Shown: positions 19,461-22,081 of the stretch, one piece after another
How the letters are laid out: each line of letters starts with the position of its first letter
Position numbering within the stretch: position 1 is the first letter of the stretch
DNA from: Bacteroidota bacterium
GTDB taxonomy: Bacteria; Bacteroidota; Bacteroidia; UKL13-3
Direction of reading: 5' to 3'
DNA length: 33,518 bases
Assembly: GCA_027484685.1 (NCBI GenBank)
Contig: JAIXSO010000043.1
Coordinates: 1-33,518 of the forward strand
Position numbers and translations under genes: made by a program
The notes under the pieces: generated by a model
The model's database searches: none
What the model was told of the DNA's origin: nothing
The model's input: the letters and a program-made list of their open reading frames with translations, nothing else

Positions 19461-19498
19461 GATAAATCATTTATAAAATTAAAAGGTGAAAATAGCTT

Positions 19499-20419
19499 CT
19501 AATATTTTTGAGTTATTGTAAAATATATTAGTTCTTCACCATGCAAACTATACCTTTTCTGTCTATGAATAATTAATTTTATCAAGCTATCATTGGAGAT
19601 AAAACTTAATAGACATTCGTTACAGTCATAATTTGTCAAATAGTTTTTATGTACAAATAGCAGTTTTAAAATCTCTTTTTTTACAGTTTCAAAATCAGTT
19701 TTATCGAAAGTACAAACGTATTCTGAATCGCAGGGACTATTTATGTGTTTAGTTTTTATTAGTTCTTCATATCCATCATCTAATAATTCGTAACTATAAT
19801 ATTTTTTCGAAATCAAACTGTCTTTTTCATCGTAAAAGTAAAGGGTTGAGTCCATATTATCTACTTCTTTCATTATTCTGTTCCTCTTATCAAAAAAAAT
19901 CAATTTTCTAAATTCAATAAGATTAGTACTAAATGCATCACCACTAAAACACGTTTGAATCCTTATTTTCCCTTCACTTGTTAAGCTATCTTTGTAGTAA
20001 AAACAAGCTTCAGAACCTGTTCTATGTGTTGAATCCTCTAAATATTCTTCTCTTTTATGGTAAATCACGTTGTTTAAACTATCAACTTGTGTTTCATAAA
20101 TAAATCTCAATTTTCCATTATCAAAATGTTTTGAAAAACTATATCCATTGTAAATTTTTGAGTAGTTTATGATTGTATAATTTTCTTTTCTGATATTACT
20201 ATATTTAATTTCTTTCACAATAGTTTTTTGAAAATTAGAAAGTGTAACAACACTATCAATCAAAAAAAGGTTTGAACTATCTTTGAACTTAAATGCAAAT
20301 TGATACCCCTTTGTCAGTTCTGCTAGTAATACTTTTTTACCTTCTACCTCAAAAAAGGTTTGTCCCAACAGATTTGTAATGGAAATCAACAATAATAATT
20401 TGGTAAAAATAATTTTCAT
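19499..20419 (-). CDS. Exported protein of unknown function
   Basis: A 306-residue protein with a clear signal peptide (hydrophobic LLLLISITNLLG, probable cleavage before QTFFEVEGKK). The mature part is rich in aromatic and charged residues and in short strand-turn units such as YHKREEYLED, LIFFDKRNRIMKEVDNM and LYFYDEKDSLISKKYY. These loosely recall YD- or MORN-like antitoxin-type repeats but do not match a family I can name. It starts 14 bases after the Fic gene's stop on the same strand, so it is probably translated from the same mRNA. Confidence 0.75.
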   Translation of the reverse strand: MKIIFTKLLLLISITNLLGQTFFEVEGKKVLLAELTKGYQFAFKFKDSSNLFLIDSVVTLSNFQKTIVKEIKYSNIRKENYTIINYSKIYNGYSFSKHFDNGKLRFIYETQVDSLNNVIYHKREEYLEDSTHRTGSEACFYYKDSLTSEGKIRIQTCFSGDAFSTNLIEFRKLIFFDKRNRIMKEVDNMDSTLYFYDEKDSLISKKYYSYELLDDGYEELIKTKHINSPCDSEYVCTFDKTDFETVKKEILKLLFVHKNYLTNYDCNECLLSFISNDSLIKLIIHRQKRYSLHGEELIYFTITQKY

Positions 20420-20433
20420 TTATTAAGTAGTTT

Positions 20434-21207
20434 TTATAAAATGGATTCCGCAAGCATGCTTAAAAAAGGAATTGATTTTGAGTAATCCAATTCATGGTAT
20501 TCAATACCGAGTATCCTTATATTATTGTAATAGGCTTGATGATTTTGGTAGTAGTATTTTTCACTTTGAACAAACCAAGCTTTTTCTCCTAATTTCTGAG
20601 CCAAAAACCATTTTTCTAATAACCTAGCTGTTCTTCCATTTCCATCATTCCAAGGATGTATTTTTACAAACACCAAATGAATCATTGCAGCATAATAAAA
20701 TGTTTCTTCAATAGAAGTTTCCTTATTTAAAAGCAATTCTAAATCAGCATAAAATTTTCCCATTTCTATTGGAACATATTGGGGTAAAGTTGCCACATAT
20801 TCAATTTTACCATCATCGCTGGCTACATACATATTTTGAGTTCTGTATGTTCCTTGATATGATTTTGGTAAAATGTTCTTGGTCAATAATTGATGAACAA
20901 TAGTTACATTTTTTTGATTGAATAAATTGGTTTTTGCAAATGCATACGCATTGTATAAATCATCAATTTTTTTAGTGTAATCAGGCAAAAAAGCAATGCC
21001 ATCTCTTTTATGTTTGATATAGCTATCTAATTCAATGTTTTCACCTTCTATTTTACTACTAAATACTGAAGCTACAGAGGTATAAAAACTAAAAGTATCG
21101 GTTGATAATTCCGCATCTTTGAGCAAATCAAACTGCAATTTCAAGTTATTAGGGAACTTGAGCAAGTAGTTGTCAAATAATTGGGATTGGATGATTTGCA
21201 GTTTCAT
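20434..21207 (-). CDS. Fic-domain protein (probable AMP transferase)
   Basis: A 257-residue Fic protein. The catalytic loop is HPWNDGNGRTAR at 184-195, with the base histidine H184 and the conserved GNGR that binds phosphates. The matching inhibitory motif S-x-x-x-E-G lies near the N-terminus in FSSKIEGEN (50-57), where E54 would hold back the active-site arginine, so it is a self-inhibited class II Fic. The target is unknown; such enzymes usually transfer AMP to a hydroxyl side chain. The start ATG is preceded by an AT-rich gap without an exact promoter box. The unknown exported gene follows 14 bases later. Confidence 0.93.
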   Translation of the reverse strand: MKLQIIQSQLFDNYLLKFPNNLKLQFDLLKDAELSTDTFSFYTSVASVFSSKIEGENIELDSYIKHKRDGIAFLPDYTKKIDDLYNAYAFAKTNLFNQKNVTIVHQLLTKNILPKSYQGTYRTQNMYVASDDGKIEYVATLPQYVPIEMGKFYADLELLLNKETSIEETFYYAAMIHLVFVKIHPWNDGNGRTARLLEKWFLAQKLGEKAWFVQSEKYYYQNHQAYYNNIRILGIEYHELDYSKSIPFLSMLAESIL

Positions 21208-21348
21208 AAACTTATATATTTCTATTACATACTAAAAATCATATATTTAGATTTAAACTTGTTGTAGTAATATTTAGTTCAAGTTTAAATAATTTATGGA
21301 TAAAATCTATGGTTTTTATAGAAATAAATATTTTTCATTACGAGTCAA

Positions 21349-21381
21349 ACCGATGCCATCGCTTAAAGCGATGGCATCGGT
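21349..21381. repeat. REP-like palindrome, downstream copy
   Basis: Arms ACCGATGCCATCGCTT and AAGCGATGGCATCGGT are perfect reverse complements around a single central A. As single-stranded DNA it would fold into a hairpin of about 13 bp with a small AT-rich loop. No T-run follows, so it is not a terminator. Confidence 0.9.
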
Positions 21382-21408
21382 GGAGCAAGCAAAAGCATAA
21401 GAGAAAAT

Positions 21409-22023
21409 CTAAAACTCTACAATATACTTACTAATTTCATTGTCAAAATTGGTTATTCCATGAAAATTTTGATATGCTTCTTTACTTCCAAACCAATTAA
21501 TTACTTCGTTTCTTTCTAATTTTGTAGGATTAGTCACCAAATGACTATGATAACTTGAATATGGATAATCTCTAAAATCAGATACAAAACCATGTTTCTG
21601 TGGATTATGATGAATATACCTAACTAAACTTGAAAAATACACTTCATTATCTACACAAATACGGTGAAATGGTTCTTCAAAAAGACCTCCTGTTCTACCG
21701 TATTGCTTATTTATGGCTTGCGCATAACTTTTAAATAAACTTGCAAAAGCATTGCTTACAATCCAAGATATAGATTTTGACTCATGTTTTCCAATTAAAA
21801 AACTTCTAATTTCTTCTTCTGATTTTACTTTTATTAATAAATGAAAATGATTTTTGAGCAAACAATAACTATAAGTGTTGATAAAGGGATAAATGTAGTG
21901 GCCATATTTCATTAAGAAATAAGTGTAATTACGCTCTTCAATAAAAATATTTTGGCCATTTATTCCTCTATTATAAATATGGTAAAACTTATTTGTTTCT
22001 AAGGAGGTTTTTCTTGTTTCCAC
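21409..22023 (-). CDS. REP-associated tyrosine transposase (RAYT), Y1/HUH family
   Basis: A 204-residue single-strand DNA transposase. It opens with the family pattern FYHIYNRGINGQNIF (13-27). The metal-binding HUH motif is H59-F60-H61 in LLKNHFHLLIKV. RTGGLFEEPFHR near 110-121 is the conserved GxFExxFxR-type block. The candidate catalytic tyrosine is Y136 in LVRYIHHNPQKHGFV. These proteins cut REP hairpin DNA through a 5'-phosphotyrosine link. Two perfect palindromes bracket the gene and are its likely substrates. The length and all key residues look intact, so it may be active. Confidence 0.93.
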   Translation of the reverse strand: METRKTSLETNKFYHIYNRGINGQNIFIEERNYTYFLMKYGHYIYPFINTYSYCLLKNHFHLLIKVKSEEEIRSFLIGKHESKSISWIVSNAFASLFKSYAQAINKQYGRTGGLFEEPFHRICVDNEVYFSSLVRYIHHNPQKHGFVSDFRDYPYSSYHSHLVTNPTKLERNEVINWFGSKEAYQNFHGITNFDNEISKYIVEF

Positions 22024-22048
22024 TGATATTTATTTTCTTAATATTTTT

Positions 22049-22081
22049 ACCGATGCCATCGCTTAAAGCGATGGCATCGGT
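22049..22081. repeat. REP-like palindrome, upstream copy
   Basis: Identical over all 33 bases to the copy at 21349-21381. It lies 25 bases upstream of the RAYT ATG, so the gene's promoter or leader must overlap it. Because the element is fully palindromic, its orientation cannot be told. Confidence 0.9.

What the first reader, a model, noticed from the sequence alone, without database searches (positions are those of the whole stretch)
21349..22081. RAYT transposase bracketed symmetrically by two identical perfect 33-bp palindromes
Two 33-bp sequences are identical at every base, are exactly 700 bp apart, and lie 25-27 bases outside the ends of an apparently intact HUH transposase gene. Each is a perfect 16-bp inverted repeat around one central base. 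REP sequences next to RAYTs are usually imperfect and carry a GTAG-like tetranucleotide on one side. Here there is no asymmetry and no shared flank, so how the enzyme chooses a strand and a cut site is unclear. This is either a recently active REP/RAYT pair or an IS200-like minimal element with palindromic ends.
Basis: partly seen in the sequence, partly recalled or inferred. Interest (0 to 1): 0.7.

Follow-up and report, generated by a model that had tools for sequence, protein, structure and literature searches.

The report
Transposase-linked 33-bp nested palindromes
A small DNA-cutting enzyme gene sits between two copies of a 33-letter palindrome; many relatives of the gene carry their own versions, in which each half of the palindrome is itself a small palindrome, a design that would let both DNA strands look alike to the enzyme.

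Summary
The 33-mer occurs 10 times in the genome, 8 times perfectly. The gene (21409-22023, minus strand) encodes a RAYT-like HUH/Y1 enzyme; its best structural match is the E. coli RAYT bound to a REP hairpin. It is no IS: one copy plus a 54% paralog. Of 84 clade genes with full flanks, 42 have palindromes on both sides and 29 the same one on both sides, against 2 and 0 of 103 neighbouring ORFs; 17 of 84 have none outside. Sequences differ between genes but a grammar holds: 15-nt unit, 3 nt, 15-nt unit. Each unit is a near-palindrome centred on its 8th base (z 11.4 over 39 families, no other centre), so the halves are inverted and direct repeats at once. 38 of 132 genes carry a palindrome inside the open frame; 20 of 31 testable ones match their own flanks. 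The GTAG-reading residues of E. coli RAYT are replaced. The closest description, subclass 2.4 of Quentin et al. 2018, has in-gene REPs but uses W and GTAG; this genome also holds such a gene. Verdict: a new variant of the REP/RAYT kind. Cleavage and mobility are inferred; some copies look kept as 3'-end hairpins.

The parts
21349..21381 (.). 33-bp palindrome, copy 1 (downstream of the RAYT gene); units 21349-21363 and 21367-21381, spacer 21364-21366
   Evidence: unit borders from the family rule
22049..22081 (.). 33-bp palindrome, copy 2 (upstream of the RAYT gene); units 22049-22063 and 22067-22081, spacer 22064-22066; homology to sister genome G003 resumes at 22079, at its outer edge
21409..22023 (-). 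RAYT-like HUH/Y1 enzyme, 204 aa, GTG start; NHFH (58), F115 at the place of a GTAG-contacting W, YIHHNP (136)
   Evidence: NF047646, 55.4 bits, below its cut-off of 80; 4er8, E 1.2e-5; model, pLDDT 91.2; 4er8_A, E 3.6e-8
19470..22081 (.). segment (306-aa ORF, Fic protein, RAYT, both palindromes) missing between the hydratase and OmpA-like genes in sister genome G003; left edge approximate
20434..21207 (-). Fic/DOC-family protein next to the RAYT; part of the variable segment, not shown to belong to the RAYT system

Best explanation
The window holds one RAYT gene with its cognate repeat. The repeat is a compact fused pair of REP-like units: a 15-nt near-palindromic unit, 3 nt, and the same unit again. 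Because each unit is nearly self-complementary, the two halves of the 33-mer are inverted repeats and also direct repeats at a period of 18 (both shown). By analogy with E. coli TnpAREP and IS608 the HUH/Tyr enzyme would bind the unit(s), nick next to the repeat and rejoin, spreading copies (inferred). The guide is unlikely to be GTAG: none is present and the five E. coli contact residues are replaced. The commonest border bases, A-R before and Y-T after each unit, are the best candidates for guide and cut dinucleotide (inferred). Some copies near stop codons appear to be kept as 3'-end hairpins (inferred from their position and from compensatory changes at orthologous sites).
For: Linkage: both flanks 42 of 84 and same sequence on both sides 29 of 84, against 2 and 0 of 103 neighbouring ORFs. 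Copies elsewhere: 10 in the genome. Nested symmetry: 65.4% of unit pairs complementary against 34.3% shuffled, z 11.4, centre 8 only; z 7.1-9.0 with 13-24 more strictly separated families, while 6 palindromes of W-type loci and 10 far from the genes give -0.1 and 1.6 at that centre. Direct repeat at shift 18: 64.4% against 40.3%, z 15.0. In-gene copies: 38 of 132 genes, 34 of 39 such palindromes between HUH and Tyr; 20 of 31 match their own flanks at 75% or more against 44 of 930 cross pairs, 0 of 200 permutations as good. Fold. Contact residues: with PMC6006769 section 12.
Against: No movement was seen: no clean 33-bp empty/filled pair was found at the three genes compared. 17 of 84 clade genes have no flank palindrome at my threshold and 25 have one side only (from the counts). 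The unit pairing is imperfect: 8 of 39 families have all five inner pairs. The 15-nt units fold weakly alone (-1.6 and -2.2 kcal/mol) against -19.1 for the 33-mer, so the units may be read as duplex, or as the symmetric stem of one long hairpin. 11 of 31 in-gene palindromes do not match their flanks at 75%, and the window's gene has none. Ten copies are few for REPs, which the abstract of PMC2817692 (search listing) puts at usually over 100.
Confidence: 0.6

Rival explanations
1. The 33-mers are transcription terminators or 3' mRNA hairpins, and the two in the window merely insulate the gene; the enzyme has nothing to do with them.
For: Five of the ten genome copies lie 18-64 nt after a stop codon. 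After the 265-aa gene, where G000 and G003 have such a palindrome, G009, G004, G001, G002, G008 and G007 have one ordinary terminator-like hairpin and G005 another; the G003 copy after the 1138-aa gene is followed by six T; compensatory changes occur there. After the 1862-aa gene G009 has a palindrome of another family.
Against: The scan finds no terminator at either window copy. Terminators do not explain copies inside the enzyme's own reading frame and their match to the flanks, the shared sequence on both sides in 29 of 84 against 0 of 103, or the dyad at position 8.
Confidence: 0.15
2. The 33-mers are double-stranded binding sites (two symmetric half-sites) through which the enzyme or a linked regulator controls its own gene; no transposition.
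For: A nested dyad is what a dimer on duplex DNA would select; the units fold weakly as single strands; sites flank the gene.
Against: Downstream and in-gene copies and copies beside unrelated genes are odd for an operator; Pfam shows no HTH domain in the protein, and the HUH and Tyr residues are kept in 129 of 130 aligned clade proteins.
Confidence: 0.15
3. A minimal IS200-like insertion sequence whose ends are the two palindromes (21349-22081).
For: Symmetric bracketing; homology to the sister genome resumes at the outer edge of the right palindrome.
Against: No second copy of the element in the genome: only a 54% paralog with other palindromes, and two matches at 27-29%; Tyr motif Y---NP, not Y---Q (PMC6006769); the missing segment begins about 1.9 kb beyond the left palindrome.
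Confidence: 0.06

Closest known systems
TnpAREP/RAYT subclass 2.4 (= RAYT group 4), Quentin et al. 2018, PMC6006769 (abstract and outline, sections 12 and 15, passages seen)
   Same: REPs flank the gene, some are symmetric 'double foot' elements, and REPs are inserted in frame between the HUH and Tyr motifs; Bacteroidetes and various other phyla
   Different: 2.4 is listed with W-Q, YIxNNP and GT[AG]G...C[TC]AC feet. Here F-E, YIHHNP and no GTAG. A gene with all the listed 2.4 motifs and GTAGAGACG...CGTCTCTAC inside it lies in the same genome (L017:7395-7961) and falls elsewhere in the tree
TIRYT/TIRtrons, Di Nocera et al. 2013, PMC3733652 (abstract and outline, section 16, passages seen); 20 of 26 are placed in subclass 2.1 by PMC6006769
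   Same: RAYT-like genes flanked by non-GTAG repeats, some partly or wholly self-complementary, some repeated in the genome; subclass 2.1 is listed with F-Q as one form of the W motif
   Different: Many of their repeats share GGGGWSAS; no nested 15-3-15 grammar and no in-gene copy in the parts I read. Quentin et al. report no REP-like sequences near 2.1 genes
REPINs (inverted REP pairs), PMC3116915 (search listing with start of abstract only; rest recalled)
   Same: Two REP-like units in inverted orientation act as one element
   Different: Here the units are 3 nt apart, nearly self-complementary, and lack GTAG
Rickettsia palindromic elements inside genes (recalled; one background passage of PMC3733652 mentions small repeats in frame in genes)
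   Same: Palindromic repeats in frame inside protein genes
   Different: Recalled as longer and not tied to a RAYT; here the host gene is the enzyme itself

Membership tests
RAYT / TnpAREP (class 2 TnpAY1) | HUH motif and Tyr motif Y---NP | tested here: met
   NHFH, YIHHNP; H, H and Y kept in 129 of 130 aligned clade proteins
RAYT / TnpAREP (class 2 TnpAY1) | Fold of the solved RAYT | tested here: met
   4er8_A best match of the model, E 3.6e-8, TM 0.59/0.72; by sequence E 1.2e-5
RAYT / TnpAREP (class 2 TnpAY1) | Low copy number, copies not near-identical | tested here: met
   one gene plus a 54% paralog and two matches at 27-29%
RAYT / TnpAREP (class 2 TnpAY1) | Flanked by palindromes that recur in the genome | tested here: met
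   10 copies
RAYT / TnpAREP (class 2 TnpAY1) | GT[AG]G foot on the REP and its reader residues | tested here: not met
   no GTAG in the 33-mer; W94, Q95, E100, H101, R104 align with F, E, R, I, D. PMC6006769 also lists subclasses with other structures (2.6, class 3), so this excludes the canonical type, not the kind
RAYT / TnpAREP (class 2 TnpAY1) | Cleaves its REP as single-stranded DNA | not testable with these tools
   needs the protein
Subclass 2.4 | W-Q motif, YIxNNP, GT[AG]G REP | tested here: not met
   F-E, YIHHNP, no GTAG; falls apart from 2.4-like genes in the tree
Subclass 2.4 | REP in frame inside the gene between HUH and Tyr | tested here: not met
   not in the window's gene; an in-gene palindrome is present in 38 of 132 clade genes
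Subclass 2.6 | NH[LIV]H, W-Q, YIH[QN]NP | tested here: not met
   NHFH, F-E, YIHHNP
Subclass 2.1 / TIRYT | NH[YF]H, F-Q, Y[IV]HLNP, C-terminal domain | tested here: inconclusive
   NHFH and F fit; E not Q, H not L; Pfam shows no C-terminal domain; eight F-bearing, 2.1-like genes are the sister group with support 0.73 only; no reference sequences at hand
IS200/IS605 | Y---Q motif, many near-identical copies, often tnpB | tested here: not met
   Y---NP, no near-identical copy, neighbours are Fic and OmpA-like genes
Intrinsic terminator | G+C-rich hairpin followed by a T run | tested here: not met
   neither window copy passes the scan; one orthologous copy in G003 has six T after it

The most novel reading that the evidence does not exclude
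A clade of RAYTs across phyla has replaced the GTAG-guided, one-sided REP by a strand-symmetric mobile unit of typically 33 bp, inverted and direct repeat at once, so that either strand is a substrate; and the enzyme keeps rewriting the copies around and inside its own gene, so that they stay alike within a locus while differing between loci, nearly always in one reading frame (30 of 34 in-gene copies in one codon phase, 9 of 11 non-redundant ones).
Probability: 0.3. Interest if true: 0.75.

Novelty: new variant of a known kind. Interest (0 to 1): 0.55.

Why it matters
How RAYTs recognise and spread REPs has been worked out for a few GTAG systems. A clade that keeps the catalytic residues, lacks the GTAG reader and has a fully symmetric repeat is a natural experiment on what the guide and the strand asymmetry are for. 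Its sequence rule (15-3-15, dyad at base 8, A-R...Y-T borders) makes cognate sites predictable in other genomes and gives defined DNA substrates for binding and cleavage tests.

Tried and rejected
IS200-like element: disfavoured on copy number and Tyr motif. Chance: rejected. Pure terminators: kept as a rival. Membership of subclass 2.4 or 2.6: rejected on motifs and tree. A guide/cut rule by cross-pairing of positions 20 and 32 (mirror of 14 and 2): looked at through the pair 2-14, 17 of 39 against 14.4 expected, so no support. Clean empty sites of the 33-mer: sought at three genes in the genus and not found; sites were kept, held by another hairpin, or too different. Edges of the variable segment: the right one falls at the palindrome's outer edge, the left one at no palindrome that I noticed, and the alignment there is A+T-rich and loose; G006 has other DNA upstream of the OmpA-like gene, and the G004 and G007 loci gave no match upstream of it. 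Literature: searches listed no paper that, from title and start of abstract, describes these 33-mers; the library lacks most subscription papers, one paper asked for by DOI (I believe Bertels et al. 2017) is not held, and supplements could not be read. The Acaryochloris hit was a CRISPR repeat.

Limits. Thresholds for calling palindromes were my own. Homologues were drawn by similarity to the window's protein. In one search I used 29 of the 30 loci (L051 left out) plus the window and the paralog. In one search, 145 of 154 genes had full flanks and 9 were left out of the counts; one gene enters twice (L035 and L115 are the same record in two collections), and near-identical genes of related genomes count singly. 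In one search the 34 even-length palindromes of 199 were left out of the position tests; searches use 39 of the 45 non-redundant odd ones (score 12 or more). Shuffles ignore relatedness; one search repeats the test with more strictly separated families, and there one control (10 distant palindromes) reached z 2.8 at another centre (11). Its controls are small. Codon-phase counts are affected by shared descent.

Full report
WHAT IS THERE. The gene is RAYT-like: NCBIfam REP_Tyr_transpos at 55.4 bits (below its cut-off of 80), Pfam Y1_Tnp at E 0.0039 (below its cut-off), one solved relative by sequence, the E. coli RAYT 4er8 (E 1.2e-5), and a confident model (pLDDT 91.2, 24 sequences) whose best solved match is the same 4er8 (E 3.6e-8), followed by IS608, IS200 and ISDra2 transposases.

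COPIES. In the whole genome (4.53 Mb, 72 contigs) the 33-mer has 10 places with up to 3 mismatches: 8 perfect, one with one mismatch, one whose two mismatches compensate each other. None of the ten is spanned by an ORF of 80 aa or more; five lie 18-64 nt after a stop codon (window copy 1, L013:5863, L014:3770, L017:4994, L018:5009), the others farther from genes or, as window copy 2, upstream of one. Within the genus 7 of 9 other genomes have it, of the rest of the family 1 of 25, of the rest of the class 0 of 23. The enzyme's own genome holds, at E 0.001, the gene itself, a paralog of 54% identity and two matches of 27-29%; the paralog has other palindromes around it. That argues against an insertion sequence.

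THE GENERAL RULE. A family profile found 154 genes in the fetched loci. With 300-nt flanks (145 genes), genes scoring 200 bits or more: upstream palindrome 53 of 84, downstream 56, both 42 (so 17 with neither), same sequence on both sides 29, inside the gene 38. At 150-200 bits: 10, 14, 8, 5 and 4 of 31. At 100-150 bits: 5, 8, 4, 1 and 0 of 13. Below 100 bits: 7, 1, 1, 0 and 1 of 17. Control, 103 neighbouring ORFs: 10, 13, 2, 0 and 4. The palindrome's sequence changes from gene to gene but its length is often the same: 96 of 199 are exactly 33, and 21 of 39 non-redundant families.

NESTED SYMMETRY. Reduced to 39 non-redundant families, the 16-nt arms were tested for self-complementarity about every centre. 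One stands out, base 8: 65.4% of pairs complementary against 34.3% after shuffling (z 11.4); the others lie between -2.4 and 1.4. 8 of 39 families have all five inner pairs (3-13 to 7-9), so the unit symmetry is strong but imperfect. With 24, 15 and 13 more strictly separated families z is 9.0, 7.1 and 7.8. Palindromes of W-type loci (6 families) and palindromes more than 800 nt from the genes (10) give z -0.1 and 1.6 at that centre; the latter reach 2.8 at centre 11. These controls are small. Equivalently, the first 15 bases repeat directly at a shift of 18 (64.4% against 40.3%, z 15.0; no other shift above 1.2). The element is thus unit(15)-3-unit(15), each unit mostly A-R-[11]-Y-T; A1, T15, A19 and T33 are the most constant bases (36, 39, 40 and 36 of 45). 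Full four-fold sets (positions i, 16-i, 18+i, 34-i) hold in 25, 25, 29, 33 and 22 of 39 families for i = 3 to 7. In the window the units are ACCGATGCCATCGCT and AGCGATGGCATCGGT. As bare single strands the 33-mer forms one long hairpin (-19.1 kcal/mol) and the units are weak (-1.6, -2.2). So the nested dyad is a sign of recognition, not of a preferred free fold: two mini-hairpins, two half-sites on duplex, or a long stem with a two-fold axis would all fit.

COPIES INSIDE THE GENE. 38 of 132 genes (130 bits or more, 150 aa or more) have a palindrome inside the open frame; 34 of 39 such palindromes lie between the HUH and Tyr motifs, centred 11-45 residues after HUH, where the alignment has a variable gap. 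Where a gene has inner and outer palindromes (31 genes), the inner one matches its own flanks at 75% or more in 20 of 31, against 44 of 930 cross pairs; means 0.75 and 0.49, 0 of 200 permutations as good. 30 of 34 in-gene copies are in the same codon phase, 9 of 11 non-redundant ones (simulation from open frames: 0 and 302 of 20000); relatedness was not corrected beyond that. The window's own gene has no inner copy.

GUIDE. PMC6006769 (section 12) lists W94, Q95, E100, H101 and R104 as GTAG contacts of the E. coli enzyme. In the alignment these face F115, E116, R121, I122 and D125. In 130 aligned clade proteins the W position is F in 116, I 7, V 3, W 2, L 1, Y 1; in 62 rows from other RAYT types it is W in 60 and F in 2 (a few genes enter twice). 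In a tree of 183 sequences the clade holding the window's gene has support 1.00; its sister group, eight F-bearing 2.1-like genes, joins with 0.73; the W types fall outside. For known systems, passages of PMC8266576 say that E. coli TnpAREP cuts at CT dinucleotides beside the REP and that GTAG acts as guide; whether Y-T at the border plays that part here is a guess.

SAME GENOME, OTHER KIND. At C60 the same genome has a gene that fits subclass 2.4 of Quentin et al. in the listed motifs (NHIH, W-Q, YIINNP) and carries the double-foot REP GTAGAGACGTATAATTATACGTCTCTAC inside it (L017:7395-7961). In-gene insertion is thus known from 2.4 (PMC6006769 sections 12 and 15) and is found here again in a clade without W and GTAG.

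HISTORY OF SITES. After the 1138-aa gene the palindrome is present in G000, G003, G006, G002 and G001; G003 has a compensated change at positions 8/26, G002 and G001 at 3/31, while G000, G006 and G001 also have one unpaired or wobble change each. G004 and G008 keep only AACCGATGC; G005 has another hairpin; G009 has none in the 190 nt read, though a copy lies about 0.7 kb downstream on the same contig. After the 265-aa gene G000 has a 33-mer and G003 a diverged one, G006 none, and the other seven genomes have terminator-like hairpins. After the 1862-aa gene G000, G003 and G006 have it, G009 a palindrome of the ACTTTGACAAAGT family, G005 and G004 none; four genomes lack the gene match. These sites look like interchangeable 3' hairpins, some long kept. 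The RAYT segment is missing in G003, where the hydratase gene adjoins the OmpA-like gene, and so in G002, G001, G009, G008 and G005; G006 has other DNA there. Homology with G003 resumes at 22079, the outer edge of the right palindrome; the left edge is near 19470.

READING. Shown: the gene kind, the copies, the linkage across phyla (as labelled), the nested grammar, the in-gene copies and their frequent match to the flanks, the loss of the GTAG reader. Inferred: that the enzyme recognises the units, cuts at the borders, needs no strand choice, and spreads the element. Not shown: any movement. The kind is known (REP/RAYT); the repeat grammar was not met in the papers listed by searches, within a library that lacks much of the field.

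Noticed in passing
L017:7395-7961 (own genome, contig C60): A subclass-2.4-type RAYT with a GTAG double-foot REP in frame inside it, in the same genome as the F-type gene.
   Followed up: partly
window 19470-22081: About 2.6 kb (306-aa ORF, Fic protein, RAYT) present here and missing between the same neighbours in G003; in five further relatives the hydratase gene also lies beside the OmpA-like gene.
   Followed up: partly
L030 4599-5258 and 6153-6809: A contig labelled Armatimonadota with two F-type RAYTs about 900 bp apart, each with its own palindrome (AGACCGACTCGG... and AGACCGCTGCGG...) outside and inside the gene.
   Followed up: no
L292-L295 and L218-L227: The same place after a stop codon is held in different species by different palindrome families or by an ordinary terminator-like hairpin.
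   Followed up: partly
L138, L141, L142, L151, L154, L155, L157, L158: A group that lost the F residue (W, Y, V or I instead) mostly lacks palindromes; overall 9 of 14 non-F genes had none against 19 of 116 F genes.
   Followed up: no
L029 (labelled Thioploca) and L090-L092: A sulfur-bacterium contig and the window's genus share nearly the same 33-mer (AGACCTGACAGG...), with genes that are not sisters in the tree; transfer or a shared favoured sequence.
   Followed up: no
L233 and L234, after the stop of the 1138-aa gene: Only the first bases of the 33-mer remain (AACCGATGC), followed by another palindromic repeat (AGACGTTTAATTAAACGTCT): a decayed or replaced copy.
   Followed up: no
L060:1501-1533: In another genus of the family the 33-mer sits inside a longer inverted repeat (cgactttt ... 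aaaagtcg).
   Followed up: no
L019 (contig C52) and L054, L055: Clusters of two or more palindrome families (ACTTTGTCAAAGT..., ACCGATGCC..., AGACCTGAAAGG...) near one another, as in BIMEs.
   Followed up: no
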